Source: Agromyces aurantiacus (GTDB lineage Bacteria > Actinomycetota > Actinomycetes > Actinomycetales > Microbacteriaceae). Taken from it: 64,000 nucleotides of DNA. Positions 29,630-43,836 of this stretch are shown here, one piece after another. Made by a program: the position numbers and the translations under genes. Position 1 is the stretch's first letter. Each line of letters starts with the position of its first letter. A model generated the notes under the pieces. The model saw nothing but the letters and a program-made list of their open reading frames with translations, did no database searches and had not been told where the DNA came from. The stretch spans positions 3,410,001-3,474,000 of the forward strand of contig NZ_JAFBBW010000001.1 of assembly GCF_016907355.1 (NCBI RefSeq), read 5' to 3'.

Positions 29630-30067
29630 CTACACCTCGAGCGCCTTCCGGAGTTCGGCCGGCGACGCCTGCATCGGGTGCGGCCCGGCGATGTCGAGGA
29701 ACACCGTGGTGATCGTCGACTCGTGGCGCTTCAGGAACGTCTTCAGCCACGCCGGGCTCTGCAATCCGACCGCGGGCGGCAGGTTGGCGGGCTTGTTCGC
29801 GGCATCGCTGAAGAGCAGCAGCGCGACCTCGCCCGTGTTCGGGTCCCGGTAGGTCCACACCTCGCCGCCGTCGAGCGGCTTGTCGCGGGGGCCGGGCTTG
29901 ATGAGCGGCACCACCGTGTTGCCGTGCCGCAGCGCGAGCGCGACCGCGGCCATGTCCTGTCGCTCGAGCGCCTCGGCGAGCGCCTGCGACCGGAACTCCA
30001 GCGCTTCGGCGCCCTTCGACGCCCTCGATGCCTTCGAACCCTTCGCGGAACGCTTCCCACCGGCCAT
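29630..30067 (-). CDS. SseB-like domain protein
   Basis: 145 residues. A Lys/Ser-rich N-terminal extension precedes an SseB-type N-terminal domain: QALAEALERQDMAAVALALRHGNTVVPLI, EVWTYRDPNTGEVALLLFSDAA. The role of such stand-alone proteins is unknown. TAGGCT (plus-strand 30074-30079 complement) is 6 nt before ATG 30067, so the message is probably leaderless. The promoter abuts the first tandem repeat array, which begins 24 bp further upstream. Confidence 0.66.
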   Translation of the reverse strand: MAGGKRSAKGSKASRASKGAEALEFRSQALAEALERQDMAAVALALRHGNTVVPLIKPGPRDKPLDGGEVWTYRDPNTGEVALLLFSDAANKPANLPPAVGLQSPAWLKTFLKRHESTITTVFLDIAGPHPMQASPAELRKALEV

Positions 30068-30090: not shown

Positions 30091-30607
30091 CGAACCCGCC
30101 CCGCGACCACCTCCCCCACCCCACACCGCGAATCCCGAGTTCCCGCGGGTACACCCGCCCCAACCCGGGACTCGACAACGAACCCGCCCCGCGACCACCC
30201 GCCCCACCCCGCGAATCCCGCATTCCCGCGGGTACACCCGCACCAACCCGGGACTCGACAACGCGCCCGCGCCGCGACCACCCGCCCCCGCGCCGCGAAT
30301 CCCGCATTCCCGCGGGTACACCCGCACCAACCCGGGACTCGGCAACGCGACCGCGCCGCGACCACCCGCCCCACCCCGCGAATCCCGCGTTCCCGCGGGT
30401 ACACCCGCACCAACCCGGGACTCGGCAACCCGCCCGCGCCGCGACCACCCGCCCCACCCCGCGAATCCCGCGTTCCCGCGGGTACACCCGCACCAACCCG
30501 GGACTCGGCAACCCGCCCGCGCCGCGACCACCCGCCCCCGCGCCGCGAATCCCGCATTTCCGCGGGTACACCCGCACCAACCCGGGACTCGGCAACGCGA
30601 CCGCGCG
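30091..30607. repeat. tandem array 1: about six 83/84-bp units with nested-palindrome core
   Basis: Cores begin (GCGAATCCCG) at 30128, 30211, 30295, 30378, 30461 and 30545, giving periods 83, 84, 83, 83 and 84. Each core has CGAATCCCG, then the near-palindrome GCGGGTACACCCGC, then CAACCCGGGACTCG; spacers share CCGCGACCACCCGCCCC in two alternating variants. Outer arms and inner palindrome can fold as one hairpin per unit. The period is not a multiple of 3 and every frame is open on both strands, so this is not coding. It fills the gap between two minus-strand genes. The same core recurs at 41994-42292. Confidence 0.93.
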
Positions 30608-30631
30608 GACAGCGCCGGCCGGCGGCGCGCG

Positions 30632-31303
30632 TCAGTAGAGCAGGAACTGCTTCGACGTCGTCGACTCGAAGCCCGACACCGACACCGACAGGTGATATGA
30701 CGCGCCGCCGCCGGGCACCGCGCTGCGCGCGTCGCCGCACGTGTCGGGCGTCGAGCGCGTGCGGTCCCAGACGATGGGCTCGCTGGAGGAGATCGGCGTG
30801 TTGGGCTCGAGCGACACCTCGGCGTCGACGGCGTCGACCTGGCAGTCGGTCGACCTCCAGTAGACGTCGTTGCCGCTCGAGATCGTGAACACCTGCGCGG
30901 CCGTCCCGGCGTTGAGCACGCAGGTGTTCGAGCCCGTGTTGATGATCGTGACCGACAGCTTGGGCTGCTCGCCGGCCGCGTACACCTCGGCGTCGGTCAC
31001 CGCCTCGACGACGACCTGCCCGTCCGTGCAGTCGGCGCCGTCCTCGGCGGGCTCCTCGGGCGCTGCCGGCGCCGGGGACTCCGACGACGGCGCCTCGGCG
31101 GCCGGCGCGCCGGATGCCGCGGGGCTCGGCGACGCCGACGGCAGCGTGGTCTGCGACACCTCGTCGCCCTGGCTCGCTCCGGGCCGCACGATCACGAGCA
31201 CGATCGCGACGATGACCGCGACGAGGCCGAGCAGCACCATGAGCCGGCGCCGCCGGTACACGGATGCGGGCAGGCGCCCGGGCGCGGGTCGGTTCGACGT
31301 CAT
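30632..31303 (-). CDS. membrane-anchored protein with Ser/Pro/Ala-rich linker and DUF4232-like domain
   Basis: 223 residues: a basic cytoplasmic start (VYRRRR), one transmembrane helix (MVLLGLVAVIVAIVLVIV, about residues 22-39), a 50-residue Ser/Pro/Ala/Glu linker, then an exported beta-sandwich-like domain with four Cys (DCTDG, NTCVLN, TDCQVD, DTCGD) likely in two disulfides. It resembles DUF4232-type secreted domains; function unknown. TAGCCT (minus strand) is 6 nt before ATG 31303. Its 3' end runs into array 1, so read-through transcripts would carry the repeat hairpins as 3' UTR. Confidence 0.72.
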   Translation of the reverse strand: MTSNRPAPGRLPASVYRRRRLMVLLGLVAVIVAIVLVIVRPGASQGDEVSQTTLPSASPSPAASGAPAAEAPSSESPAPAAPEEPAEDGADCTDGQVVVEAVTDAEVYAAGEQPKLSVTIINTGSNTCVLNAGTAAQVFTISSGNDVYWRSTDCQVDAVDAEVSLEPNTPISSSEPIVWDRTRSTPDTCGDARSAVPGGGASYHLSVSVSGFESTTSKQFLLY

Positions 31304-31376
31304 GCGCTCAGGCTACGACCGGCGCCTCGCCGGACCCGGTCGGCACCGCGGCGCGCCGGGAGGCGGTGAGGAACAC

Positions 31377-31883
31377 TCAGAGCATTTTCAGCATGCGCGT
31401 GTTGCCGAGGGTGTTCTGCTTCACGCGCGCGAGGTCGAGGAACTCGGCCACGCCCTCGTCGTGCGAGCGCACGAGCTCGGCGTACACCTCGGGGTCCACG
31501 GTCTCGCCGCCCATGTCCTGGAACCCGTGCCGGCCGAAGAAGCCGACCTCGAACGTGAGGCAGAACAGTCGGCTCAAGCCGAGCTCGCGCGCATCCTCCT
31601 CGAGCGCGTCGAGCAGCGCGTGCCCGACGCCGTGCCCGAGCCAGTCGTCGCGCACGGCGAGCGTGCGCACCTCGCCGAGGTCCTCCCACATCACGTGCAG
31701 CGCGCCGCAGCCGACGACCTCGCCGTCGTCGGACTCGGCCACCCGGAACTCCTGGACCGCCCCGTAGAGGTCGACGCGTTCCTTGCCGAGCAGGATGCGC
31801 CGGGCCACGAGCGGTTCCACGAGGTCGAGGATCGTCGGCACGTCGTGCGTGCGCGCACGGCGCACGAGGAAGGGCTGGGCCAT
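31377..31883 (-). CDS. argA: amino-acid N-acetyltransferase (short ArgA type)
   Basis: 168 residues. A GNAT domain with VRTLAVRDDWLGHGVGHALLDALEEDA (acetyl-CoA loop) and the C-terminal RLFCLTFEVGFFGRHGF typical of the short actinobacterial N-acetylglutamate synthase (Rv2747-like), which starts arginine biosynthesis. No kinase-like domain is fused, as expected for this type. ATG 31883 is 6 nt downstream of TACGAT; nine codons of open frame further upstream are ignored. No other arg gene is in the window. Confidence 0.84.
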   Translation of the reverse strand: MAQPFLVRRARTHDVPTILDLVEPLVARRILLGKERVDLYGAVQEFRVAESDDGEVVGCGALHVMWEDLGEVRTLAVRDDWLGHGVGHALLDALEEDARELGLSRLFCLTFEVGFFGRHGFQDMGGETVDPEVYAELVRSHDEGVAEFLDLARVKQNTLGNTRMLKML

Positions 31884-31942
31884 CCGCTCATCGTATTGCC
31901 CACGGCGCACGCCGCCCAGCGCGCCTCCGCGTGCGCCGCGGG

Positions 31943-32021
31943 CCTGCTCCGGGGGTCGTTCCGCGACATCCGCCGTCGTGCGCCGGCCCGCCGATGGCGC
32001 GAATCGACCCCCGCGAGCAGG
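31943..32021. repeat. imperfect inverted repeat enclosing 46 bp
   Basis: CCTGCTCCGGGGGTCG (31943-31958) and CGACCCCCGCGAGCAGG (32005-32021) are inverted copies apart from one inserted base; the enclosed stretch itself contains GCGCC/GGCGC arms. It lies in the 213-bp gap between argA and the clpC terminator, which otherwise holds nothing gene-like. Confidence 0.45.
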
Positions 32022-32042
32022 CAGCCGCCCCGACAGAGACGA

Positions 32043-32076
32043 CGAGGGGGCGGATGCCGCGGCATCCGCCCCCTCG
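32043..32076 (-). terminator. clpC terminator built on a perfect 34-bp palindrome
   Basis: 17-bp perfect arms meeting without a loop, containing two facing copies of GGATGCCGC, 21 bp after the clpC stop. Confidence 0.75.
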
Positions 32077-32096
32077 GGTCGAACCGGTCGTGCGGG

Positions 32097-34619
32097 TTAC
32101 TGCCCCGCCGCCAGGTCGGGCGTGGCCGGCCCGGTGCCGATCGCGGCGCCGGTGTTGACGCCCACGCCGACGGGCAGCGCCCGCTGGGTCGTGGTGAACA
32201 CGAACTCGCCGTCCTTGAAGTCGACGTGCACGTGGTCGCCCGAGTTGAGCTCGCCGTGCAGGATCTTCTCCGAGAGGCGGTCCTCGACCTCGTGCTGCAC
32301 CGCGCGGCGCAGCGGGCGGGCGCCGAGCGCCGGGTCGAACCCGACCTCGATGAGCCGCTCCTTGGCCGCGGTGGTGAGCTCGACGGTCATGTCGCGGTCG
32401 AGCATGCGCTCGCCCAGGCGCTTGATGAACAGGTCGACGATCTGCAGCAGCTCCTCCTTGCTGAGCTGCGGGAAGACGATGATCTCGTCGACGCGGTTGA
32501 GGAACTCGGGCTTGAAGTGCTTCTTCAGCTCCTCGTTCACCTTCGCGCGCATGAGGTCGTAGCCCGTGCGGGTGTCGCCTTCGATCTGGAAGCCGACGGG
32601 GCCGCCCGAGATGTCCTTCGTGCCGAGGTTGGTCGTCATGATGATGACGGTGTTCTTGAAGTCGACGACCCGGCCCTGGCCATCCGTCAACCGGCCCTCC
32701 TCCAGGATCTGGAGGAGCGAGTTGAAGATGTCGGGGTGAGCCTTCTCGATCTCGTCGAAGAGCACGACCGAGAACGGCTTGCGGCGCACCTTCTCGGTGA
32801 GCTGGCCGCCCTCCTCGAAGCCGACGAAGCCGGGAGGGGCGCCGAAGAGGCGCGAGACCGTGTGCTTCTCGCCGTACTCCGACATGTCGAGCGAGATCAT
32901 CGCCGACTCGTCGTCGAAGAGGAACTCCGCGAGCGCCTTCGCGAGCTCGGTCTTGCCGACGCCCGTGGGGCCGGCGAAGATGAACGAGCCCGAGGGACGC
33001 TTCGGGTCCTTGAGGCCGGCGCGCGTGCGGCGGATCGTCTTCGACAGGGCGGAGATCGCCTCCTCCTGGCCGATGACGCGCTCGTGCAGCGCCTTCTCCA
33101 TGAAGACGAGTCGCGACGACTCCTCTTCGGTCAGCTTGAAGACGGGGATGCCGGTGGCCTGCGCGAGCACCTCGGCGATCAGGCCCTCGTCGACGACCGC
33201 GGTCGTCTTGACCTCGCCCGACTTCCACTGCTTCTCGAGGCGGAGGCGCTCGCCGAGCAGGGTCTTCTCCTCGTCGCGAAGCGACGCGGCCTTCTCGAAG
33301 TCCTGCTCCTCGATCGCGGTCTCCTTGGCGGCGCGGACGACGGCGATCTTCTCGTCGAACTCGCGCAGCTCGGGCGGCGACGACAGGATCGACAGGCGCA
33401 GGCGGGCGCCCGCCTCGTCGATCAGGTCGATGGCCTTGTCGGGCAGGAACCGATCGCTGATGTAGCGGTCGGCGAGGTTCGCGGCGGCGACGATCGCGCC
33501 ATCCGTGATCGAGACCTTGTGGTGCGCCTCGTAACGGTCGCGGAGCCCCTTGAGGATGTTGATCGCGTGCGGGAGCGACGGCTCGGCGACCTGGATCGGC
33601 TGGAAGCGGCGCTCGAGCGCGGCATCCTTCTCGAAGTGCTTGCGGTACTCGTCGAGCGTGGTCGCGCCGATGGTCTGCAGCTCGCCGCGCGCGAGCAGCG
33701 GCTTGAGGATCGAGGCGGCGTCGATCGCGCCCTCGGCGGCGCCCGCACCCACGAGGGTGTGGATCTCGTCGATGAAGACGATGATGTCGCCGCGCGTGCG
33801 GATCTCCTTGGTGACCTTCTTCAGGCGCTCCTCGAAGTCGCCGCGGTAGCGCGAGCCGGCGATGAGCGAGCCGAGGTCGAGCGAGTAGAGCTGCTTGTCC
33901 TTGAGCGTCTCGGGCACCTCGCCCTTGACGATCGCCTGCGCGAGGCCCTCGACGACCGCGGTCTTGCCGACGCCGGGCTCGCCGATGAGCACGGGGTTGT
34001 TCTTGGAGCGGCGCGAGAGGATCTGCATGACCCGCTCGATCTCCTTCTCGCGGCCGATCACGGGGTCGAGCTTCGACTCGCGGGCAGCCTGCGTGAGGTT
34101 GCGGCCGAACTGGTCGAGGATCTGCGATCCGCCCTGGGCCTGCTGCTGCTCGGTCGCGCCGACCTGCACCTGCTCCTTGCCCTGGTAGCCGGAGAGGAGC
34201 TGGATGACCTGCTGGCGCACGCGGTTGAGGTCGGCGCCGAGCTTGACGAGCACCTGCGCGGCGACGCCCTCGCCCTCGCGGATGAGCCCGAGGAGGATGT
34301 GCTCGGTGCCGATGTAGTTGTGGCCGAGCTGCAGGGCCTCGCGCAGCGAGAGCTCGAGCACCTTCTTGGCGCGCGGCGTGAACGGGATGTGCCCGGTCGG
34401 CTGCTGCTGGCCCTGTCCGATGATGTCCTGCACCTGCTCGCGCACGGCGTCGAGCGAGATCCCGAGGGACTCGAGCGCCTTGGCGGCCACGCCCTCACCC
34501 TCGTGGATGAGGCCGAGCAGGATGTGCTCGGTGCCGATGTAGTTGTGGTTGAGCATCTTGGCCTCTTCTTGGGCCAGGACGACGACACGTCGGGCGCGGT
34601 CGGTGAATCTCTCGAACAT
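32097..34619 (-). CDS. clpC: ATP-dependent Clp protease ATP-binding subunit ClpC
   Basis: 840 residues. Two N-terminal Clp-N repeats ([19 protein letters not shown] and [19 protein letters not shown]), D1 AAA+ with [13 protein letters not shown], a middle domain with a UVR-like stretch ([16 protein letters not shown]), D2 AAA+ with [13 protein letters not shown] and a typical C-terminus. As the unfoldase of ClpCP it feeds substrates to ClpP1P2. I chose ATG 34619 because GAGGAG is optimally spaced from it and the protein then begins [11 protein letters not shown] as in homologues; an ATG lies one codon earlier. The 5' leader is AT-richer than average (34640-34680), but no ClgR-type site is clear. 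Confidence 0.96.
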
Positions 34620-34801
34620 CATCAACTCCTCACGGCGCCGGGTAGGGGCGTCGATACAACAACGGTAACGACCGCGATCGCGCGGCGGGTGCGTGTTCGC
34701 CGTGGGCGCATCGCTGCCGGGGCGCGCTTCGTCATGCGAGCCGGGCGGATGTCGCGAGCCCCCGGGATGCCGATTGACAGCGACGCGCGGCATCCGTAGC
34801 T

Positions 34802-34832
34802 TATCGAATATCGTTGTTATCGTTCTTCGATA
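34802..34832. promoter_or_regulatory. TATCG repeat operator of the DUF2975-Xre operon
   Basis: TATCGAA (34802-34808) and TTCGATA (34826-34832) are an inverted pair; TATCG also occurs directly at 34809-34813 and 34818-34822 (9-bp pitch). This AT-rich block overlaps the expected promoter and is probably bound by the Xre protein encoded as the second gene. Confidence 0.6.
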
Positions 34833-34846
34833 TGAAAGGCAACTCC

Positions 34847-35473
34847 ATGGACCCGAACTCCGTCACCGCAACACGCCTCCCCTCGCGCGCCGACACCGTC
34901 GGCATCTGGGCCTTCATGGTCGCCGGCACCGGCATCGTCGCCTGGGCGGTGGTCGGCGCCGTCCTGCGGATCACGGACGCGCTCTCCTCCCCCGAGGTCC
35001 GCGTGCTCGCCGAGTTCGCCGGAACGCCCGCCGAAGCGCCGATCGGCCCCGGCGGTGCGCCCGTCGCGATCGAGCTCGACCGCGCGTTCCTCTTCACCGA
35101 CGAACTGCCCGGCCCGTCGCTCGTGGCGCTCGTGCTCTCGGAGATCGCGTTCGCGGTCAGCGTCGCCGCCGTGGTGGCATGCCTGCTCCTGCTGAGCGCG
35201 TCCACCCTGCGCGGCCGGGTGTTCAGCCGGCGCAACACGCGCCTCGTCGCCACGGCCGGCACGGCCGGCCTGGTCGGTGCGGCCGCGGTGCCGTTCCTCG
35301 CCAACATGGTCGCCAACGGCGCGTTCGCGCGCATCTCCGACGGCGAGTTCGACAACGTGCTGATGTCCGTCGACCTCATGCCGTTCGTCCTCGCCGCCTT
35401 CGTGGTCGCGATCATCACGACGGCCTTCGCCGTCGGCGAGCGCCTGCAGCGCGACACCGAGGGCCTCGTCTGA
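34847..35473 (+). CDS. DUF2975 membrane protein
   Basis: 208 residues with four predicted transmembrane helices, in the order FMVAGTGIVAWAVVGAVL, LVLSEIAFAVSVAAVVACLLLL, GTAGLVGAAAVPFLANMV and FVLAAFVVAIITTAFAVGERL, and a large extracytoplasmic loop after the first. This is the DUF2975 topology, regularly paired with a small Xre regulator. AAAGG with 7-nt spacing selects ATG 34847 over ATG 34832. The stop codon overlaps the next ATG (TGATG). Confidence 0.84.
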   Translation: MDPNSVTATRLPSRADTVGIWAFMVAGTGIVAWAVVGAVLRITDALSSPEVRVLAEFAGTPAEAPIGPGGAPVAIELDRAFLFTDELPGPSLVALVLSEIAFAVSVAAVVACLLLLSASTLRGRVFSRRNTRLVATAGTAGLVGAAAVPFLANMVANGAFARISDGEFDNVLMSVDLMPFVLAAFVVAIITTAFAVGERLQRDTEGLV

Positions 35474-35742
35474 TGGCGCCGGCCGAGCCCGATGACGCGC
35501 ACGACGTGCACTGCCGCCTCGACGAGCTCCTCGCCGCGCGCGGGATGACCCTGACGAGGCTCGCCGAGCTCGTCGGCGTGAGCGTGGTGAACCTCAGCGT
35601 GCTGAAGAACGATCGCGCGCGCGCCATCCGGTTCTCGACGCTGCAGGCGATCTGCCGTGCCCTCGACTGCGAGATCGGCGAGCTGCTGGTGCTGCGACGA
35701 ACGGATGACCCGGGGGCCGCGTCGGAGGCGACGGCCCGCTGA
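35473..35742 (+). CDS. small Xre-family HTH regulator
   Basis: 89 residues: a single HTH_26/Xre helix-turn-helix (LDELLAARGMTLTRLAELVGVSVVNLSVLKNDRARAIRFSTLQAICRALDCEIGELL) of the YozG type with short flanks. It is translationally coupled to the DUF2975 gene (shared TGATG). In this common gene pair the regulator is presumed to control its own operon; the TATCG cluster at 34802-34832 is the candidate operator. Confidence 0.87.
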   Translation: MAPAEPDDAHDVHCRLDELLAARGMTLTRLAELVGVSVVNLSVLKNDRARAIRFSTLQAICRALDCEIGELLVLRRTDDPGAASEATAR

Positions 35743-35782
35743 CCGCCTCGACGCACCGGCCCGCGCGTGGTTGGATGCACGC

Positions 35783-36301
35783 ATGCCCAGACTCGTGCTG
35801 ACCGTCATCGGAGACGACCGCGCAGGCCTCGTCGAGGCCCTCGCCGACGCCGTGAACGCCCACGGCGGCAACTGGGAGCAGAGCCAGATGGCCGAGCTCG
35901 CCGGCCAGTTCGCGGGGATCGTCGTGGTGACGGTGCCGGCCGAGCGGGCCGACGAGCTGCGCGAGGCGCTCGACGGGCTCGAGGGGCTGCTCGAGGTCGC
36001 GGCGCACCCGGGCTCCGAGGAGCCGGCGGGGGCCGACCACTGGCGTCGCCTGCGCATCGACCTCGTCGGCAGCGACCGGCCGGGCATCGTGCACGACGTG
36101 TCGGCCGTGCTCGCGCGTCACGGGCTCAGCATCGAGACCATCACGACCGAGCGCCGCGACGCGCCCATGTCGGGCGGCATCCTCTTCGAGGCGCACATCG
36201 CGGTGCGCGTGCCCCCGGGCGGCGACCCCGCCGACGTGCGGCAGGACCTCGAGCAGGTCGCGAGCGAGCTGTTCGTCGACCTCACGGTCGGGCAGGAGTA
36301 G
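35783..36301 (+). CDS. double ACT-domain protein (GcvR-like)
   Basis: 172 residues containing two ACT domains: LVLTVIGDDRAGLVEALADAVNAHGGNWEQSQMA (residues 4-37) and LRIDLVGSDRPGIVHDVSAVLARHGLSIE (about 90-118). The layout matches glycine-cleavage repressor GcvR-like proteins, which bind amino acids and lack DNA-binding domains. TTGGAT lies 6 nt before ATG 35783, a weaker version of the leaderless box. No glycine-cleavage gene is in the window. Confidence 0.82.
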   Translation: MPRLVLTVIGDDRAGLVEALADAVNAHGGNWEQSQMAELAGQFAGIVVVTVPAERADELREALDGLEGLLEVAAHPGSEEPAGADHWRRLRIDLVGSDRPGIVHDVSAVLARHGLSIETITTERRDAPMSGGILFEAHIAVRVPPGGDPADVRQDLEQVASELFVDLTVGQE

Positions 36302-36330
36302 GGCGCCCGGGCCGTCGGCCGGCTCCGGCG

Positions 36331-36843
36331 CTACTTGATCGGCACCGTGACGACCGCGTCGCCGACGGTGACCTCGAGCGGCTCGGTCGTCGTCACGTCG
36401 TAGGGCGTCGAGAATACCGTCGTGTGGGGCACGAAGTCGGCCGTGCACGGGCCATCCTCGGGCTCGGGCAGCACGGCCTCGACGGCGTTGCCCTCGCCCG
36501 CCGGCGCGGTCACGCGGAGGTCGGTCGACACGACGGGGCAGGTCGACGAGCCCCAGATGGTGATCGCGAGCCGGCCGCCGTCCTGGAGGTACTGCACGTA
36601 GGGCTCGTCTCCGGTCGGCTCGGGGACCTCCTCGGCCGAGCCCTGCTCGGTCTCATCCTCGGTCTCGCCACCCTGGTCGGTGTTCTCGGCCTCGCCCGCG
36701 GCCTCCTGCTCCTCGTCGAGCACCGGGAGGCCCGCGAAGTCCTCGACCGGACCCGACCCGGGCGCGCAGCCCGCGAGCAGGAGCGTCGCGGCGACGGCGA
36801 CGGTGGTGAACAGGAGGCGGCGGACGTCTGCGTGCGGGGCCAT
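36331..36843 (-). CDS. putative lipoprotein, function unknown
   Basis: 170 residues. The signal peptide ends in the lipobox LLLAGC (Cys about residue 26). A Glu-rich acidic linker follows, then a small domain with two Cys (TCPVV and GPCTADF) and beta-rich sequence. There is no recognisable family. ATG 36843 is 7 nt downstream of TAGCAT on the minus strand, favoured over an ATG three codons upstream that overlaps the -10. Confidence 0.68.
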   Translation of the reverse strand: MAPHADVRRLLFTTVAVAATLLLAGCAPGSGPVEDFAGLPVLDEEQEAAGEAENTDQGGETEDETEQGSAEEVPEPTGDEPYVQYLQDGGRLAITIWGSSTCPVVSTDLRVTAPAGEGNAVEAVLPEPEDGPCTADFVPHTTVFSTPYDVTTTEPLEVTVGDAVVTVPIK

Positions 36844-36915
36844 GTGCGACATGCTAGCCCGCGGCATCCGCTCAGGGCAGGATGTCGCGCCGCGACCCGC
36901 GCGTAGGATGCGGGA

Positions 36916-37950
36916 ATGAGCAACCTCGAGCGCGACCCCGTCGAACTGCTCTGCCCGCCCGAGACGCCGCACGGCCCGGCCGTGCAGGTGCTCGAGTTCC
37001 GCGAGGTGCCGCTCGGCGGGCCGCGCGCGATGCCGGTGCGGCGCACCCTCCCGCAGCGCGGGCGCACGACCATCGGCGCGTGGTGCTTCGCCGACCACTA
37101 CGGGCCCGACGACGTGTCGGACACGGGCGGCATGGTCGTGCCGCCGCACCCCCACACGGGCCTGCAGACCGTGAGCTGGCTGTTCGAGGGCGAGATCGAG
37201 CACCGCGACTCGACCGGCAGCCACGAGCTCGTGCGCCCCGGCGGGGTGAACCTGATGACCGCCGGTCGCGGCATCTCGCACTCCGAGGTCTCGACCGCCG
37301 CGACGACGCGACTGCACGGCGTGCAGCTGTGGGTCGCGCTGCCCGAGGCCTCCCGGCACGTCGCGCCGTTCTTCGAGCACGCCGACACGACGCCGTTCCG
37401 GCTGGGCGACGCCACGGTGCGCGTCTTCGTGGGCGAGCTCGCGGGCGAGGGCGAGTCCGCCGCGTCGGCCGAGACGACGGATGCCGCGTCCGCGGCGGTC
37501 ACCGTCTTCTCGCCGCTGCTCGGGGCCCAGGTCGACCTGCCCGCGGGCGGCACGGTCGACGTGCCGCTCGACCCGCGCTTCGAACACGGCGTGCTCGTCG
37601 ACGCCGGACCCGCGCACGTCGAAGTCGCCGGGGCAGGTGCCGCGACCGAGGTTGCGTGGTCGAACCTGGCCTACCTCGAGCCGGGGCACGCGAGCCTGCG
37701 GCTGCGCGCCGACGCCGACCCCGTGCGCGTGGTGCTGCTCGGCGGCGTGCCGTTCGGCGAGGAGCTCGTGATGTGGTGGAACTTCATCGGACGCTCGCAC
37801 GACGAGGTGGTCGAGTTCCGGCGCCGTTGGCAGTCCGACGTGATCGACCGAAACGACCCCGACGGGCCGTTCGGCACCGTGGCGGGCTACGACGGGCGCC
37901 CGCTGCCCGCGCCCGAGCTGCCGACGGTGCGGCTGAAGCCGCGGCGGTGA
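36916..37950 (+). CDS. pirin family protein
   Basis: 344 residues of the bicupin pirin family. The N-terminal cupin has the metal-ligand pattern DHYGPDD, PPHPHTGLQTVSWLFEGEIEHRDS and GRGISHSE (three His and Glu). The C-terminal cupin includes GVPFGEELVMWWNFIGRSHDEV. Some pirins are quercetin dioxygenases, others redox-sensing regulators. TAGGAT (36904-36909) lies 6 nt before ATG 36916. It is divergent from the lipoprotein gene with separate promoters. Confidence 0.9.
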   Translation: MSNLERDPVELLCPPETPHGPAVQVLEFREVPLGGPRAMPVRRTLPQRGRTTIGAWCFADHYGPDDVSDTGGMVVPPHPHTGLQTVSWLFEGEIEHRDSTGSHELVRPGGVNLMTAGRGISHSEVSTAATTRLHGVQLWVALPEASRHVAPFFEHADTTPFRLGDATVRVFVGELAGEGESAASAETTDAASAAVTVFSPLLGAQVDLPAGGTVDVPLDPRFEHGVLVDAGPAHVEVAGAGAATEVAWSNLAYLEPGHASLRLRADADPVRVVLLGGVPFGEELVMWWNFIGRSHDEVVEFRRRWQSDVIDRNDPDGPFGTVAGYDGRPLPAPELPTVRLKPRR

Positions 37951-37982
37951 GGCGCGCGCCGCGACATCCGCAGACGCGCCGA

Positions 37983-38012
37983 CGGCCGGTGCCCAGGAGG
38001 GAGCACCGGCCG
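37983..38012. terminator. bidirectional terminator between pirin and fruA genes
   Basis: Perfect 10-bp stem CGGCCGGTGC/GCACCGGCCG with a 10-nt loop between convergent genes. Confidence 0.7.
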
Positions 38013-38033
38013 CCGGGGTGATCGCGTGGCCGA

Positions 38034-40097
38034 TCAGGCCACGGCCACCTCAGGCGCACCCACCGCCTGCTCTTCCCGCACCGGGCGCCGGTGGGCCCAG
38101 CGCTTGAGTGCGATGACCACCAGGGCACCGACCACCGAGCCGGCGATGATCGCGAGGACGAACCAGAGCAGGTTGCCGATCGCGAAGAACACGAAGATGC
38201 CGCCGTGGGGCGCCTGCGACGTCACGTCCATGCCCATGCAGATCGCGCCGGCCACGGCACCGCCGATGACGGTCGCCGGGATGACCCGGAAGATGTCGGC
38301 CGCCGCGAACGGGATCGCACCCTCCGAGATGAACGCCGCACCGAGCAGCCACGCGGCCTTGCCGTTCTCGCGCTCGACCGGGGTGAACAGCCGGCGATCG
38401 ATCACGGTCGCGAGGGCCATGGCGAGCGGCGGGACCATCCCGGCGGCCATGACCGCGGCCATGATCGCCCACGGCGCCTGGTTGTCGGGCGAGCCCGCAC
38501 CGAGGCCGGCGACCGCGAACGCGTAGGCGACCTTGTTGACCGGACCGCCGAGGTCGAAGCCCATCATCGCGCCGAGGATGAGGCCGAGCAGCACCGCGCC
38601 GGCACCCGAGAGGCTCGACAGCCAGTCGTTGAGCGCGGTCGAGAACGCCGAGATCGGTCCGGCGAGCACGACGATCATGAGGCCGGAGGCCACGATCGAC
38701 GCGAGCAGCGGGATGATCACGACCGGCATCAGGCCCTTGAGCCAGCGCGGCACGTCGAGTCGCGCGAGCATGAGCGCGATCCATCCGGCGAGCAGGCCGC
38801 CCACGAGGCCGCCGATGAAGCCGGCGCCCATGAGCCCCGCGACCGAGCCCGCGACGAAGCCGGGCGCGATGCCCGGGCGGTCCGCGATGGCGTAGGCGAT
38901 GTAGCCGGCCAGCGCCGGCACGAGGAAGCCCATCGAGATCGCGCCGATCGAGAAGAACACGGCGCCGAGGTAGATGCCCAGGCCGCCCTCGGGGAGGTTC
39001 CAGAGCGCGTTGGTCGTGACGATCTCGGTCGCGTTCTCGGTGATGTCGTACCCGCCGAGGAGGAACCCGAGCGCGATGAGCAGACCACCGCCCGCGACGA
39101 ACGGGATCATGTAGCTGACGCCGGTGAGCAGCACGCGCTTGATCTTCTGGCCGAAGTGCTCGTGCGCCACCGCGGCCGCCGCACTCTCGGCGGCGGCGTC
39201 GCCCGCGACGCGCGGTGCCGCCGGGTCGTCGATCGCGGCGACGGCCTCGCGGATCATCTCGGCGGGGTGGTCGATGCCGCGCTTGACCGGTCCGGCCACG
39301 ACGGGCTTGCCGGCGAACCGGGACTTGTCGCGCACGTCGACGTCGACCGCGAAGATGACGGCGTCGGCCCGCTCGATGACGGACGGCGCGACCGGGGTCG
39401 CTCCCGCCGAGCCCTGGGTCTCGACGTGCAGCTCGACCCCCGCCTCATCGCCCGCCTTGGCGAGCGCGTCGGCGGCCATGTACGTGTGGGCGATGCCCGT
39501 GGGGCACGCGGTGACGGCGATGATCACGGGCTTGCCCGTGTGGTGCGCGGCAGCGGGCGCGGTCGCGGTCGCGGTCCCGCCGGACGCAGCGGTGGCGGCC
39601 GCCGTCGCGCCGGTCGCCGCGGCCGCGGCCGCCGCGGGAGCGGGCTCGGGCGCGAGCGCGGCCTCGACGTGCGCGACGAACGTCGCGGCGTCGGGCGCCG
39701 ATCGCAGCGACGCGACGAAGTCGTCCTTGATGAGCGAGCGCGCGAGCGTCGAGAGCACCGCGAGGTGGTCCTGCGTCGAGGCGGTCGGCACCGCGATGAG
39801 GAACACGAGGTCGGCGGGCCCGTCGAACGAGCCGAAGTCGACCCCCTCGGGCAGGCGCGCCGCCGCGAGCGTCGGACGCGTGACCGCGTCGGACTTGGCG
39901 TGCGGGATGGCGATGCCGCCGGGCACCCCCGTGGAGTCCTTCTCCTCGCGGGCCCATGCGTCGGCGAAGAGCGCCTCCGCGTCGGTGGCGCGGCCGGCCG
40001 CGACGACGCGCTCGGCGAGCGCGCGGATCACGTCGGCCTTGTCGGCGCCGAGCGGCGCGTCGAGGCTCACGAGCCCCTGGTCGATGACGTCGGACAT
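38034..40097 (-). CDS. fruA: PTS fructose transporter, fused IIA-IIB-IIC
   Basis: 687 residues in the order IIA-IIB-IIC. IIA (1-150) has the phospho-His in GGIAIPHAKSD (His66). An Ala-rich linker leads to IIB with the phospho-Cys in VTACPTGIAHTYMAADAL (Cys198). IIC (about 330-655) has eight or more membrane helices with GFLLGGYDI and GPVNKVAYAFAVAG. It imports fructose as fructose 1-phosphate. It is the last gene of fruR-fruK-fruA, 11 bp after fruK, with AGGAGG and 7-nt spacing before ATG 40097. Confidence 0.95.
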   Translation of the reverse strand: MSDVIDQGLVSLDAPLGADKADVIRALAERVVAAGRATDAEALFADAWAREEKDSTGVPGGIAIPHAKSDAVTRPTLAAARLPEGVDFGSFDGPADLVFLIAVPTASTQDHLAVLSTLARSLIKDDFVASLRSAPDAATFVAHVEAALAPEPAPAAAAAAATGATAAATAASGGTATATAPAAAHHTGKPVIIAVTACPTGIAHTYMAADALAKAGDEAGVELHVETQGSAGATPVAPSVIERADAVIFAVDVDVRDKSRFAGKPVVAGPVKRGIDHPAEMIREAVAAIDDPAAPRVAGDAAAESAAAAVAHEHFGQKIKRVLLTGVSYMIPFVAGGGLLIALGFLLGGYDITENATEIVTTNALWNLPEGGLGIYLGAVFFSIGAISMGFLVPALAGYIAYAIADRPGIAPGFVAGSVAGLMGAGFIGGLVGGLLAGWIALMLARLDVPRWLKGLMPVVIIPLLASIVASGLMIVVLAGPISAFSTALNDWLSSLSGAGAVLLGLILGAMMGFDLGGPVNKVAYAFAVAGLGAGSPDNQAPWAIMAAVMAAGMVPPLAMALATVIDRRLFTPVERENGKAAWLLGAAFISEGAIPFAAADIFRVIPATVIGGAVAGAICMGMDVTSQAPHGGIFVFFAIGNLLWFVLAIIAGSVVGALVVIALKRWAHRRPVREEQAVGAPEVAVA

Positions 40098-40108
40098 CGG
40101 ATTCCCTC

Positions 40109-41080
40109 CTATGGGATGACCGGGGCGACGGCGCCCCGGATTCGGGTGACGGTGATGGCGGACGCATCGGCGATCTCCCGCGAGGGGACCGCCGAGCCCG
40201 GGAGCGACGCAGCCGCCGCCCCGTGTGCGACCGCCTGGGCGAGCGCCCGCTCGGGCGCCGCCCCTTCGGTCACGGCGAGCAGGAAGCCGGCGAGCGAGCT
40301 GTCGCCCGCGCCGACCGTGCTGCGCGGCACGATGCGCGGCGCCGGGGCGAACCACGCCCCGTCGCCGTCGACGAGCACGGCTCCGGTGGAGCCGAGCGTG
40401 ACGAGGGCCGAACGGATGCCGCGGGGCACGAGCGTCGCGGCGACCTCGGCGACCCGCTCGGGGTCGGCCTCGAGTGCCTCGGCGTCGGCCAGGCCGACCA
40501 GCTCGGCGAGCTCCTCGCCGTTGGGCTTGATGAGGTCGACGGGCTCGCCGGCCTCCACGATCGCGGCGAGCGGGGCGCCCGAGGTGTCGACCGCGATGCG
40601 GGCGACGACGCCCGCGGCGCGCGCCTCACGCACGACTCGCACGTAGAAGTCGGCCGGGAGCGACGGCGGCAGCGAGCCGGCGAGCACGAGCCACGAGGCA
40701 TCCGCCGACTGGGCGATGACCGCCGCGATGAGCGCCCGCTGCTCGGCCTCGGTGAGCTCGGGGCCGAGCTCGTTGAGCTTGGTGGTGACGCCGTCGGGCT
40801 CGGTGACCGTGATGTTCGAGCGCAGGCGCGCGGTGATCGGCACGGTCGCGACCGGCACGCCGGCCGACGCGAGCGCCACGACGAGCGGGTCGTCACCGCG
40901 GCCCGGCAGCACGGCGACGGATGCCGCGCCCGCGGCGTCGAGCGCCCGCGTGACGTTGACCCCCTTGCCGCCGGGCTCCTCGACGCTGCGGAGGACGCGC
41001 TGCACCTCGCCGCGCGAGAGCGCCTGCTCGAGCTCGACCGTGCGGTCGAGCGACGGGTTGACGGTCAGCGTGATGATCAT
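40109..41080 (-). CDS. fruK: 1-phosphofructokinase
   Basis: 323 residues, PfkB sugar-kinase family: the N-terminal IITLTVNPSLDRTV and PGGKGVNVTRAL are typical of FruK, and the C-terminal STVGAGDSSLAGFL contains the catalytic Asp in GAGDS. It converts fructose 1-phosphate to the 1,6-bisphosphate. Its ATG overlaps the fruR stop by 4 nt (ATGA), and fruA follows, so import and phosphorylation are one operon. Confidence 0.94.
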   Translation of the reverse strand: MIITLTVNPSLDRTVELEQALSRGEVQRVLRSVEEPGGKGVNVTRALDAAGAASVAVLPGRGDDPLVVALASAGVPVATVPITARLRSNITVTEPDGVTTKLNELGPELTEAEQRALIAAVIAQSADASWLVLAGSLPPSLPADFYVRVVREARAAGVVARIAVDTSGAPLAAIVEAGEPVDLIKPNGEELAELVGLADAEALEADPERVAEVAATLVPRGIRSALVTLGSTGAVLVDGDGAWFAPAPRIVPRSTVGAGDSSLAGFLLAVTEGAAPERALAQAVAHGAAAASLPGSAVPSREIADASAITVTRIRGAVAPVIP

Positions 41081-41865
41081 GCGACCCGCACCTCCACCTC
41101 GGCGTCGTCGAGCGCCTCGGCGAGTGCCGGGGGCGGCGGCGCATCCGTGATCAGCACGTCGACCTCGTCGAGGCATGCGAACCGGTGCAGCGCCTCGTCG
41201 TCGTGCTTGGAGGCGTCGACGAGCACGACCGCGAGCCGCGACCGCTCGACCATGGCGCGCTTGACCTGCGCCTCGAGCTCGTCGGGCGTCGAGAGCCCGA
41301 ACTCGGCGCTCACGCCGTTGGTGCCGACGAACGAGATGTCTGGGCGGATGTCGGCGAGCTGGGCGACCGCGGTCGGTCCGACCGCGGCACTGGTCACGCC
41401 GCGGACGGTGCCGCCGATGACGCGGACGATGAGGTCGGCGTTGCCGTGCAGGAGCGCCGCGATGGGCACCGAGTTCGTGTAGACGGTGAGCGGTGCGATG
41501 CCGGCCGCCGGGTGCCATCCGGCGAGTGCCTCGGCGAATGCGCCCGTGGTCGTGCCCGCGTCGAGCAGGATCGAGCCGGTGAACGTGGGCGGCACGAGCG
41601 CGAGCGCAGCCTGCGCGATCGCGCGCTTGGCGTCGGTGTGGCGCTCGGTGCGCTCGAGCACCGTCGTCTCGGCGAGGCTCGCGCGCGACGCGCTCACGGC
41701 GCCGCCGTGGACGCGACGGACGTGGCCCGCCTTCTCGAGCGCGTCGAGGTCGCGCCGGATGGTCTCGGCGGTGACGTCGAGCTCGGCGGCGAGGTCGGCG
41801 ACCGAGACGCGGCCCGTGCGGGCGAGCGCGTCGAGGATGTGCTCGTGTCGCTCCATCGCGTACAT
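41077..41865 (-). CDS. fruR: DeoR-family regulator of the fructose operon
   Basis: 262 residues. The N-terminal DeoR HTH (ERHEHILDALARTGRVSVADLAAELDVTAETIRRDL) is followed by a DeoRC sensor domain (LDAGTTTGAFAEAL, IGGTVRG, DISFVGTNGVS) that usually binds a phosphosugar, here probably fructose 1-phosphate. It is the first gene of the operon with AAGGGGG before ATG 41865. A -35/-10 pair and an ACACAAACGCA-type stretch upstream suggest autoregulation. Confidence 0.9.
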   Translation of the reverse strand: MYAMERHEHILDALARTGRVSVADLAAELDVTAETIRRDLDALEKAGHVRRVHGGAVSASRASLAETTVLERTERHTDAKRAIAQAALALVPPTFTGSILLDAGTTTGAFAEALAGWHPAAGIAPLTVYTNSVPIAALLHGNADLIVRVIGGTVRGVTSAAVGPTAVAQLADIRPDISFVGTNGVSAEFGLSTPDELEAQVKRAMVERSRLAVVLVDASKHDDEALHRFACLDEVDVLITDAPPPPALAEALDDAEVEVRVA

Positions 41866-41907
41866 GCGGCCCCCTTGCCGGATCGAACTGCAACCTGCGT
41901 TTGTGTG

Positions 41908-41937
41908 AGTTTAGCTCGTTATCTCAGCGTAATGCAA
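41908..41937 (-). promoter_or_regulatory. promoter of fruR-fruK-fruA
   Basis: Minus strand: -35 TTGCAT (41937-41932), 18-bp spacer, -10 TAAACT (41913-41908). The leader (about 35 nt) begins near ACACAAACGCAGG, a plausible DeoR-type operator overlapping the start site. Confidence 0.7.
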
Positions 41938-41993
41938 GACATTCGCAGAAATTCCCACAGACCCCAACATTCTCGCGTGCGCCGAGCCCTTCA

Positions 41994-42292
41994 CGAGTCC
42001 CGGGTTTCTGCGGGTGCACCCGCAGAACCGCGGGACTCGCACGCATGGAGGCGCAGCCGGCCCCCGATCCCACCACCCGAATCCCGGATTTCTGCGGGTG
42101 CATTCGCGACAACCCGGGACTCGCGCACCCCCAGGCACACCCGAACGCCCCCAGACCACCCGAATCCCGGATTCGTGCGGGTGCACCCGCGACAACCCGG
42201 GACTCGCGCACCCTCAGCACACCCGAACGCCCCCAGACCACCCGAATCCCGGACTCGCGCGGGTGCACCCGCGACAACCCGGGACTCGGGAA
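41994..42292. repeat. tandem array 2: four 82-84-bp units sharing the array 1 core
   Basis: Cores begin (CGARTCCCGG) at 41994, 42078, 42161 and 42243, giving periods 84, 83 and 82. The core is CGAATCCCGG, about 7 bp, GCGGGTGCACCCGC (perfect 14-bp palindrome in three units), then CAACCCGGGACTCG in three of the four units. Spacers (CACCCGAACGCCCCCAGACCAC) differ from array 1 although the core is the same. The first unit has fully complementary outer arms (CGAGTCCCGG/CGCGGGACTCG region). The array lies between the 3' end of the phospholipase D gene and the fru promoter. The 77 bp after it (42293-42369) is a GA/GC low-complexity tract without a gene. Confidence 0.92.
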
Positions 42293-42369: not shown

Positions 42370-43836
42370 CTACTGCAGCGCCGAGGTGAGCCGCGCGAGG
42401 TTGTCGAGGATGGTGGAGCGCAGCGGCTGCCGCATCCACTCCTCGAGCGTGAGCTCGCGGCTGTCGCGCCGGTAGCCGTCCTCGACGGCGCGCATCTCGC
42501 GCACGAACGACTCGCCGCGCACCAGCAGCGAGACCTCCATGTTGAGCTCGAACGAGCGGATGTCCATGTTGCTCGAGCCGATGACGGCGACGTCGTCGTC
42601 GATCGTGAAGTGCTTCGCGTGCAGGATGAACGGCGCCTTGTACATGTAGATGCGCACGCCGGCGCGCAGCAGCGCCTCGTAGTACGACCGCTGCGCGTGG
42701 TACACGAGCGCCTGGTCGCCGATCTCGGAGACGAACAGCTCGACGTGCACGCCCCGCTGGGTCGCTCCGCTGATGGCGCGCAGCATCGCCTCGTCGGGCA
42801 CGAAGTACGGGCTCGTGATGATGATGCGCTCGCGCGCCGCGTAGAGCAGCGCGAGGAAGAGCTTGAGGTTGTTCTCGTTCGCGTAACCGGGGCCGCTCGG
42901 CACGACCTGGCAGTCGAGGTCCTGCTGCTCCGCCTCCTGCTCGAACGGGATCAGCTCGTCGCGCGAGGGCGCCTCGCCGGTCTCGAGGTACCAGTCGGTC
43001 GCGAAGATCGCGTCGAGGCCCGACACGATCGGCCCCTCGACCTCGGCGACGAGCTCCTGCCACTTCAGTCCGCGGCGGATGTTGCTGCGCTTGTGGTAGC
43101 TGCGGTCGACGATGTTCTGCGAGCCGAGGTAGCCGATCTCGCCGTCGACCACGAGGATCTTGCGGTGGTTGCGGAGGTCGGGCCGCTGGTACTTGCCCTT
43201 GAGCGGCATGACCGGCAGCATGAGCCGCCAGGCGACGCCCATGTCGGTGAGGCGCCGGATGGTGCGCCGGTAGCCCTTCACGCGCCGCGACGCGATGTGG
43301 TCGATGAGCACCTTCACCTCGACGCCGCGCGCGACGGCGTCGCCGAGGGCGTCGACGAAGCGCTCCGTCGTCGAGTCGTACGCGAAGATGTAGAACTCGG
43401 CGTGCACGTAGCGCTCGGCGCCGGCGATGGCGTCGGTCATCGCGTCGAGCGAGGCCTGGTAGTCGCCGATGAGGCGTGCGCCGTTCGAGCCGATGAGCGG
43501 CATCGCGCCGAGGTTGCGGTTCAGGCGCACGACGCCCTCGAACCAGGTCGGCCACTTCGTGCTGTCGCTCACGCGCTCGACGCCGTGGGTGCTCTCGCGG
43601 ATGAACCGGTCGACCTCGTCCTGCTTGGCGCGCCGCGCCTTGGGCAGCTTGGGGTTGCCGATGAGCAGGAAGAACAGGATCCCGAGGTACGGGATGAAGA
43701 AGATGGCGAGCAGCCACGCCATCCCGGCAGTGGGCCGGCGGTTGCGCGGCACCACGATGATCGCGATGACGCGGATGACGAGGTCGACGATCACCAGCAG
43801 GGCGGCGATGATCGCCGTCGTCTGCGCCTCGGTCAT
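42370..43836 (-). CDS. cls: cardiolipin synthase-like phospholipase D family protein
   Basis: 488 residues. Two N-terminal membrane helices (PLDc_N) are followed by two HKD motifs: NHRKILVVDGEIGYLGSQN and LHAKHFTIDDDVAVIGSSN. This is the bacterial ClsA-type layout, predicted to make cardiolipin from phosphatidylglycerol at the membrane, although actinobacteria often also use a CDP-alcohol type enzyme. It is the last gene of a leftward run with two tiny membrane proteins and lysS. Its 3' end leads into array 2. Confidence 0.88.
   Translation of the reverse strand: MTEAQTTAIIAALLVIVDLVIRVIAIIVVPRNRRPTAGMAWLLAIFFIPYLGILFFLLIGNPKLPKARRAKQDEVDRFIRESTHGVERVSDSTKWPTWFEGVVRLNRNLGAMPLIGSNGARLIGDYQASLDAMTDAIAGAERYVHAEFYIFAYDSTTERFVDALGDAVARGVEVKVLIDHIASRRVKGYRRTIRRLTDMGVAWRLMLPVMPLKGKYQRPDLRNHRKILVVDGEIGYLGSQNIVDRSYHKRSNIRRGLKWQELVAEVEGPIVSGLDAIFATDWYLETGEAPSRDELIPFEQEAEQQDLDCQVVPSGPGYANENNLKLFLALLYAARERIIITSPYFVPDEAMLRAISGATQRGVHVELFVSEIGDQALVYHAQRSYYEALLRAGVRIYMYKAPFILHAKHFTIDDDVAVIGSSNMDIRSFELNMEVSLLVRGESFVREMRAVEDGYRRDSRELTLEEWMRQPLRSTILDNLARLTSALQ

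What the first reader, a model, noticed from the sequence alone, without database searches (positions are those of the whole stretch)
30091..42292. Two unlinked tandem arrays built on one nested-palindrome core
Arrays at 30091-30607 (6 units) and 41994-42292 (4 units) share the core CGARTCCCG / GCGGGT-N2-ACCCGC / CCCGGGACTCG at 82-84-bp pitch, while their spacers differ. A shared core with unshared spacers means the core is what is conserved. Both arrays lie in the same genic setting and orientation: after the 3' end of one minus-strand gene and just before the promoter of the next. The combination looks like an undescribed dispersed repeat family with a defined job (3'-end processing, termination, nucleoid protein binding or supercoil relief).
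Basis: partly seen in the sequence, partly recalled or inferred. Interest (0 to 1): 0.82.

Follow-up and report, generated by a model that had tools for sequence, protein, structure and literature searches.

The report
Replication-oriented, helix-spaced palindrome arrays
One high-GC bacterium carries 87 copies of a 46-base near-palindrome at 23 places between genes; most copies are spaced by whole turns of the DNA helix and point with DNA replication rather than with the neighbouring genes, which suggests a DNA-protein docking site and not an RNA signal.

Summary
The two arrays (six and four cores) belong to a family of 87 copies at 23 loci of this genome, 20 arrays and 3 single copies. No other genome searched has it as a family (59 of the genus, 397 of the family, 295 of the class, overlapping sets); a few relatives have single look-alikes. 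None of the 23 loci overlaps a predicted gene; all lie just after a stop codon (18 between same-strand genes, 5 convergent, 0 divergent).

Three features were not foreseen.
1. Core-to-core distances cluster near 73, 83, 94 and 104 bp, whole helical turns (56 of 64).
2. The slightly asymmetric core follows the replication fork in 17 of 18 polar arrays, but the nearest gene in only 9 of 17.
3. 22 of 23 loci lie within 1.05 Mb of dnaA, on both arms.

Core halves match each other less than random halves do, so hairpin pairing is not what is kept. At purA the array sits before a conserved terminator-like hairpin. No Y1/RAYT transposase was found.

Best reading: double-stranded polar protein-binding sites, recently amplified. 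Main rival: a mobile repeat inserting by strand at the fork. All rests on one genome; no protein is identified.

The parts
30129..30174 (-). core copy 1 of array 1 (46 bp; polarity '-': minus strand reads CGAGTCCCG...CGGGATTCG)
30212..30257 (-). core copy 2 of array 1
30296..30341 (-). core copy 3 of array 1
30379..30424 (-). core copy 4 of array 1
30462..30507 (-). core copy 5 of array 1
30546..30591 (-). core copy 6 of array 1
30129..30591 (.). array 1: pitch 83,84,83,83,84 bp (about 8 helical turns); linkers C-rich on the + strand, G-rich on the minus (leading) strand, + strand GC skew -0.46
30632..31303 (-). predicted gene whose stop codon lies 40 bp before array 1 (no Pfam family)
29630..30067 (-). 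next minus-strand predicted gene; start 61 bp beyond array 1 (no Pfam family)
41994..42039 (.). core copy 1 of array 2 (symmetric at columns 4/43)
42078..42123 (-). core copy 2 of array 2
42161..42206 (-). core copy 3 of array 2
42243..42288 (-). core copy 4 of array 2
41994..42288 (.). array 2: pitch 84,83,82 bp; linkers G-rich on the minus (leading) strand, + strand GC skew -0.49
42370..43836 (-). gene with PLD-like domains whose stop lies 81 bp before array 2
41077..41865 (-). DeoR-family regulator gene; start 128 bp beyond array 2

Best explanation
The 46-bp core is a double-stranded DNA site with two related but systematically unequal halves, CGARTCCCG-NN-TT-NNN-GCGGGT / ACCCGC-NNN-AA-NN-CGGGAYTCG, so it has a direction. 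One or more copies are set mostly on the same face of the helix at whole-turn distances, so that the bound proteins can touch each other along the array. The arrays are placed after 3' ends, where they harm no gene, and are kept in one direction relative to the replication fork inside an origin-centred half of the chromosome. The most likely job is chromosome organisation or fork- or segregation-coupled loading or roadblock activity by a sequence-specific protein. Shown: copy number, placement, phase, polarity, origin-proximal distribution, lack of hairpin covariation, empty sites in relatives. Inferred: that a protein binds, that bound copies contact each other, and the chromosome-level role.
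For: Phase: 64 pitches, best period 10.45 bp (R = 0.73), phase offset -0.05 bp at 10.4 bp; 56 of 64 lie within 0.2 turn of a whole number at 10.45 bp. With one median per array (20 arrays) R = 0.71, p about 4e-5, and 0 of 20,000 uniform draws reach it. Polarity: core direction agrees with the leading strand in 17 of 18 polar arrays (p = 1.4e-4; 13 of 14 merged clusters). Linker G-richness agrees in 15 of 16 arrays with |skew| >= 0.15, or 17 of 20 of all multi-copy arrays. Agreement with the nearest gene is 9 of 17. General strand bias is too weak to cause this: third-position GC skew is -0.145 on leading and -0.143 on lagging genes of the left arm, and -0.168 on both for the right arm. Location: 22 of 23 loci within 1.05 Mb of dnaA; KS p = 2.6e-4, or 2.8e-3 for 17 clusters; no model match better than E = 0.099 in a 300-kb sample at 2.1-2.4 Mb. 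The catalogue is complete at 2 mismatches: the whole genome has 83 forward skeleton matches and the fetched regions hold 83. Halves of one core are less alike than random halves (16.3 against 17.2 of 21 positions; 0 of 5000 shuffles as low).
Against: No binding protein is identified, and no binding or chromosome-conformation data exist here. Relatives do without the family, so the function cannot be essential in the genus. Polarity and origin bias are also expected of an element that inserts at forks. Polarity, phase and position were all noticed after looking, in one genome, and the p-values are not corrected for that. Copies inside an array are duplicates, so the independent sample is about 17-23. 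The period is poorly fixed: 10 to 11 bp fits nearly as well (R = 0.71 at both), the 30 distinct pitches are best at 10.7 and the set joined with the second family at 10.25. Five pitches (79, 80, 90, 100, 130) lie at least 0.3 turn off, so some arrays change by about half turns (84 to 100, 94 to 79, 93 to 130). Array 3306076 points the wrong way.
Confidence: 0.45

Rival explanations
1. Non-autonomous mobile repeat (REP-like in habit) that inserts into one strand at the replication fork, such as the lagging-strand template, then expands locally into tandem arrays. Only copies after 3' ends survive. No host function.
For: The array is absent after purA in all 11 relatives read, of 29 relatives' loci returned (in 4 of the 11 other sequence follows purA and one contig ends), and from two further gaps of G017. 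The family is restricted to one genome. Polarity with the fork is a known property of IS200/IS605 elements, which use the lagging-strand template (passages of PMC6006769). Placement downstream of genes matches REPs (abstract of PMC3733652). The leading-sequence strand makes the more stable DNA hairpin in 16 of 23 loci, the less stable in 3 (margin 0.2 kcal/mol).
Against: No Y1 transposase (PF01797) match in the genome, while 5 of 14 control genomes ring. Core halves do not covary and are less complementary than chance, unlike an element recognised as a hairpin. Helical phasing and the near-absence from the terminus half are not explained by insertion alone.
Confidence: 0.33
2. RNA element in 3' untranslated regions: bidirectional terminator, mRNA 3'-end stabiliser or processing hairpin.
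For: All 23 loci start 2-170 bp after a stop codon and none lies between divergent genes. Divergent gaps are 40 of 144 array-free gaps. Two singletons (2707367, 3739293) are near-perfect 46-bp palindromes. A near-palindrome can work in both directions, so lack of a gene-direction bias does not exclude a terminator by itself.
Against: Direction ignores transcription, 9 of 17. There is no covariation and pairing is lower than shuffled. At purA the terminator-like hairpin lies beyond the array and is found without any array in 6 of 11 relatives read. No hairpin plus T-run at the two window arrays (the other 21 loci were not scanned). Whole-turn spacing has no meaning in RNA. The only Rfam matches in 6 of the 19 regions, holding 10 of 23 loci, are four tRNAs elsewhere in the window.
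Confidence: 0.1
3. Replication-strand mutation bias on a once symmetric repeat (C to T on the leading strand at column 43) produced the polarity, and selection was not involved.
For: Read on the leading strand, column 43 is T in 17 of 18 polar arrays. Intergenic skews have the matching sign (3-4% GC, 6-7% TA), though the arrays themselves are part of that intergenic sequence.
Against: Third-position GC skew is equal on leading and lagging genes. Other C's in the same cores are nearly invariant. Linker skews are 0.31-0.64 in 16 of 20 arrays, far larger, and they flip together with the core in the exceptional array 3306076.
Confidence: 0.05
4. Phasing is a by-product of how tandem units duplicate, not of binding.
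For: Copies within an array share linkers (for the window arrays; by eye for most others), so pitch is inherited within an array. Some arrays change pitch by about half turns (84 to 100, 94 to 79, 93 to 130).
Against: Different arrays with different linkers fall on different whole-turn classes, and some arrays change class internally by about 1-3 turns: 84 to 93, 73 to 105, 94 to 115. A second, unrelated palindrome family in the genus also shows 84, 94, 103-105 and 115 bp.
Confidence: 0.07

Closest known systems
REP / BIME / REPIN elements (GTAG- and CGTC-tagged; PMC3733652, abstract and passages seen)
   Same: Extragenic palindromes in many copies, located downstream of genes between same-strand and convergent genes, some grouped or reiterated in tandem.
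   Different: 46 bp rather than 20-40 bp; no GTAG/CGTC tag noticed by eye; no Y1/RAYT match in the genome; head-to-tail arrays; direction follows replication; spacing mostly follows the helix.
BoxC / TMECO triplex motif of E. coli (PMC4666352, passages seen)
   Same: Intergenic near-palindrome. In E. coli K-12 the paper says it seems to cluster in the origin half of both replichores.
   Different: 37 nt; the paper reports no strand-orientation bias, says that other E. coli strains and other bacteria did not show the origin clustering, and mentions tandem inverted rather than phased head-to-tail copies.
BRE repeat of Betaproteobacteria (PMC3110155, passages seen)
   Same: About 90 bp, usually intergenic, tandem at some loci, species-variable.
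   Different: The paper states that the repeats are not co-oriented with the direction of the replication fork; units in tandem are separated by no or only a few nucleotides.
Chromosome-organising sites such as parS, KOPS, matS, Noc and SlmA sites (recalled, no call)
   Same: Works like: short dispersed sites read by a dedicated protein, with regional (ori or ter) or fork-polar distribution.
   Different: No sequence match was sought to any of them; the sites recalled are single, not helix-phased 46-bp arrays, and are conserved more widely.
CRISPR arrays (recalled)
   Same: Palindromic 46-bp repeat; linkers of 25-84 bp.
   Different: Linkers are near-copies of each other within an array (93-94% period matches for the window arrays); the family is dispersed over 23 loci with 1-6 copies each.

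Membership tests
REP/BIME | extragenic, predominantly downstream of genes | tested here: met
   23 of 23 loci outside predicted genes and after a stop codon (587524 by reading ORFs)
REP/BIME | associated Y1 (RAYT) transposase in the genome | tested here: not met
   PF01797: 0 matches in G000; 5 of 14 controls ring. CGTC-type REPs also lack a known dedicated transposase (abstract)
REP/BIME | paired stem kept by covariation | tested here: not met
   80.8% of cells paired against 84.5% in shuffles, all 500 shuffles at least as high; 0 of 5000 as low at array level
REP/BIME | terminal GTAG or CGTC tag | tested here: inconclusive
   none seen by eye in flanks printed; no systematic scan
CRISPR | unique, unrelated spacers | tested here: not met
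   linkers repeat within the window arrays and by eye in most others
CRISPR | adjacent cas genes | not tested
   no cas search was run; of 20 of 44 neighbouring proteins scanned none matched a cas model over its cut-off, one regulator matched cas_HTH below it
Intrinsic terminator | hairpin followed by a T-run at the transcript end of the gene | tested here: inconclusive
   no hairpin plus T-run at the two window arrays; direction ignores gene strand, 9 of 17; separate terminator-like hairpin beyond the array at purA. Transcripts not measured, other loci not scanned
Phased protein-binding array | site spacing in whole helical turns | tested here: met
   56 of 64 within 0.2 turn; 5 at least 0.3 turn off
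Phased protein-binding array | a cognate protein binds | not testable with these tools
   no protein known
Replication-polar chromosome site (KOPS-like class) | orientation follows the replichore | tested here: met
   17 of 18 polar arrays; ori taken at dnaA, terminus not located
Replication-polar chromosome site (KOPS-like class) | conserved across relatives | tested here: not met
   absent as a family in 59 genus, 397 family and 295 class genomes
Replication-polar chromosome site (KOPS-like class) | read by a known translocase or organiser protein | not tested
   no call
Integron attC | folded single-strand site recombined by an integron integrase | not tested
   integrase not searched; lack of covariation does not favour it

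The most novel reading that the evidence does not exclude
A lineage-specific system that marks the origin-proximal half of the chromosome: fork-polar, helix-phased docking arrays for an unknown actinobacterial protein, evolved recently. The genus may have a general habit of building helix-phased arrays from different palindromes, since an unrelated 54-bp family in the same genus obeys the same spacing rule at short range.
Probability: 0.28. Interest if true: 0.86.

Novelty: new variant of a known kind. Interest (0 to 1): 0.68.

Why it matters
Dispersed palindromic repeats are usually discussed as hairpins, terminators or transposon remnants. Here the repeat's own geometry separates these ideas: it looks as if read as a duplex, mostly counted in helical turns, and aligned with replication rather than transcription. 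If a protein reads it, this would be a recently evolved chromosome-organising or fork-coupled site set. If it is selfish, it would be an element with strong fork polarity that shows no Y1 transposase and no hairpin signature. The prediction can be tested directly by pull-down of the 46-bp duplex.

Tried and rejected
Terminator or RNA element: rejected as main reading, not excluded. REP/RAYT membership: rejected for lack of a Y1_Tnp match and of covariation. CRISPR: rejected on repeated spacers. Plasmid or phage origin: array 1 was compared with plasmids and array 2 with phages, no match (the other two combinations were not run). The exact core gives 0 loci in genome contigs and viral contigs (the tool may leave out this genome and very near ones). 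The looser skeleton gives 0 in viral contigs and 2 Spirosoma loci in genome contigs, which carry a palindrome with the same ends and an AT-rich middle and look like an unrelated resemblance. Wider-ends pattern in the family: 12 of 397 other genomes have one place each, mostly not palindromic inside by eye; its reversed control also rings in 3 of 398, so this is near chance. In the genus the same control is 0 of 60. A dif motif recalled from memory gave 0 hits, so the terminus is unplaced. Equal-distance pairing of arrays on the two arms was considered by eye and not tested. A first simple gene caller gave overlaps with long wrong-frame ORFs and was replaced by one trained against the five wrong frames; placement counts use the second, corrected at 587524 by reading ORFs (that ORF looks like an HTH regulator by eye and was not scanned). 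The second palindrome family was absent (best E = 0.061) from 34 regions of G000 read for the first family and the terminus sample. Literature: searches listed no paper that, by title and abstract start, describes this repeat or the combination of features; this rests on those searches of an open-licence library alone.
Full report
WHAT WAS CHECKED. The two arrays are as described. The window lies at 3,410,001-3,474,000 of a single-contig genome of 3,884,057 bp, here G000.

HOW MANY AND WHERE. A covariance model from 45 copies and a pattern scan of the fetched regions give 87 copies at 23 loci, 20 arrays and 3 single copies. The model's whole-genome run was capped at 150 scored candidates. Of the 87, 83 match the 22-base skeleton with up to 2 mismatches. 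The whole genome has 83 such forward matches and the fetched regions hold 83, all in the catalogue, so the catalogue is complete at that stringency. The other four are degenerate or one-base-longer copies beside good ones.

NOT A GENUS-WIDE FAMILY. The model finds 6 of 60 genus genomes (own included). The five others have one to four weak strand matches with 26-43 bits, against up to 72 bits in G000. The ends-only pattern finds 4 of 60 in the genus and 13 of 398 in the family, own included each time; in the family run the reversed control also rings in 3 of 398. The skeleton with 2 mismatches finds 1 of 296 in the class, G000 itself. A few relatives (G011, G017, G031, G047) have palindromes of 45-47 bp with CGAGTCCCG-like ends and different inner arms, a possible source of the family.

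PLACEMENT. With a codon scorer trained against wrong frames, 0 of 23 loci overlap a predicted gene. Twenty-two begin 11-170 bp after a stop codon, median 50. The remaining one, 587524, begins 2 bp after the stop of an ORF that my scorer had missed. Gene arrangement is 18 same-strand, 5 convergent, 0 divergent. Divergent gaps make up 40 of 144 array-free gaps of at least 20 bp in the same regions, so 0 of 23 has probability about 6e-4, or 4e-3 for 17 clusters. Neighbours are mixed: adenylosuccinate lyase, glycyl-tRNA synthetase, D-Ala-D-Ala ligase, regulators, a PLD-like enzyme and others (20 of 44 listed neighbours scanned), plus purA, recognised by eye; its protein matches in 57 of 60 genus genomes.

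EMPTY SITES. Downstream of purA, 11 relatives were read of 29 whose loci were returned. None of the 11 has the array. In six (G017, G031, G011, G058, G053, G037) a GC-rich hairpin of the type GGGGCGGATG...CATCCGCCCC, with variants, follows purA. In G000 a hairpin of this type is kept beyond the array (L071 4550-4581). G028 breaks off inside its left arm, and in G021, G024, G023 and G052 other sequence follows. Calling the hairpin a terminator is inference from its form and place. Two other orthologous gaps in G017 also lack cores. The arrays are therefore additions to existing gaps in this lineage.

PHASE. Of 64 core-to-core distances, 7 are 72-74, 23 are 82-86, 20 are 92-95 and 6 are 102-105; the rest are 71, 79, 80, 90, 100, 113, 115 and 130. 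The best common period is 10.45 bp with R = 0.73, and at 10.4 bp the offset is -0.05 bp. Counting distinct values per array (30) gives R = 0.63 and Rayleigh p about 8e-6. One median per array (20) gives R = 0.71 and p about 4e-5, with 0 of 20,000 uniform draws as good. Periods between 10 and 11 bp fit nearly as well, so the period itself is only roughly measured, and the p-values do not allow for having looked first. At 10.45 bp, 56 of 64 are within 0.2 turn of a whole number and 5 (79, 80, 90, 100, 130) are at least 0.3 turn off.

POLARITY. Columns 4 and 43 make the core directional (CGAGT...GATTCG on one strand). Taking ori at dnaA (365,791), this strand is the leading strand in 17 of 18 arrays that have a direction; five loci are symmetric. 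The linkers are G-rich on the leading strand in 15 of 16 arrays with |skew| >= 0.15 and in 17 of 20 of all multi-copy arrays. The exceptional array 3306076 has both core and linker reversed together. Merged to clusters closer than 20 kb, 13 of 14 agree (p = 1.8e-3). Agreement with the nearest upstream gene is 9 of 17, or 10 of 18 with 587524 added by hand. The genome's own strand bias is tiny.

POSITION. 22 of 23 loci lie within 1.05 Mb of dnaA on both arms; the exception is a lone near-perfect palindrome at 2,707,367. KS against uniform distance gives p = 2.6e-4 for 23 loci and 2.8e-3 for 17 clusters. In 300 kb at 2.1-2.4 Mb the best model match has E = 0.099. The terminus was not located.

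DUPLEX OR HAIRPIN. On the alignment of 45 copies, pairing across the dyad is below the shuffles: 80.8% against 84.5%, all 500 shuffles at least as high. At locus level, halves of the same core match at 16.3 of 21 positions, against 17.2 for random halves, 0 of 5000 as low. Conserved columns are symmetric, but variable columns do not compensate. That is what a duplex site read by two subunits would show, with either selection for direction or avoidance of long perfect palindromes. The two near-perfect palindromes are singletons, not arrays; the third singleton, 422322, is not near-perfect.

A SECOND FAMILY. A 54-bp palindrome CAGGATGA...TCATCCTG occurs in 20 of 60 genus genomes by exact ends, G000 included, and in 13 of 60 by its own model at E <= 1e-5. 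The model and counts use 32 copies that I picked from the cut listing. Unlike the first family it does covary (0 of 500 shuffles reach its covariation score). Its close tandem distances are again near whole turns: 84, 94 four times, 103.5, 104.5 and 114.7 bp (R = 0.98 for 8 arrays under 120 bp). All 15 distances, including seven of 133-210 bp, give R = 0.62, p about 0.003. Some of these arrays may be orthologous to each other.

INTERPRETATION. Phase argues for contact on double-stranded DNA. Polarity and origin bias argue for a tie to replication or segregation. Lack of covariation argues against hairpin recognition. Absence in relatives argues for recent amplification, which both the functional and the selfish reading must accommodate. 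I hold the duplex docking-site reading at 0.45 and the fork-targeted mobile repeat at 0.33. They are not exclusive: a binding site may have spread by a mobile mechanism. Polarity of single-strand transposons at forks is documented (PMC6006769, passages seen), but no Y1-type transposase was found. Other HUH enzymes, group II introns and integron integrases were not searched.

LIMITS. One genome; features found by inspection and then tested on the same data; copies inside arrays are related; gene calls are mine; no expression or binding data.

Noticed in passing
L145 2743-2889, L147 2626-2763, L148 3351-3404, 13012-13065 and 13194-13247, L149 2742-2955, L146 3062-3115 (G000); L150-L164 in relatives: A second palindrome family, 54 bp, outer arms CAGGATGA/TCATCCTG, inner arms covary; in 20 of 60 genus genomes by exact ends; close tandem copies at 84, 94, 103-105 and 115 bp.
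   Followed up: partly
G017:C1 about 3,660,584-3,660,776 (in L133): Another two-unit tandem array of about 103 bp with arms CGAGGTGACGC...GCGTCATCTCGG beside a 54-bp-family copy.
   Followed up: no
L071 4550-4581 (beyond array 3874083); L088, L092, L093, L094, L095, L097 in relatives: Hairpin of the type GGGGCGGATG...CATCCGCCCC after purA in G000 and 6 of 11 relatives read, probably a bidirectional terminator.
   Followed up: partly
L069 4794-4839; L066 4868-4913: The only near-perfect 46-bp palindromes among the 23 loci's representative copies are isolated singletons.
   Followed up: partly
loci at 48160, 544985, 587524, 743823, 1299573, 1414614, 3314547, 3440129, 3451994, 3701443: G-quadruplex patterns occur on the leading-sequence strand in 10 of 23 loci and on the other strand in 2 (3306076, 3830440).
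   Followed up: partly
L070 4941-5441 (array 3830440): Linkers of this array have almost no GC skew (0.01), as do those of 1298388, 325478 and 544985 (|skew| up to 0.10); its cores are symmetric at columns 4/43.
   Followed up: no
L073 6289-6334; L074 6203-6248: Two Spirosoma genomes carry one palindrome with the same CGAGTCCCG ends and an AT-rich middle at what looks like the same site.
   Followed up: no
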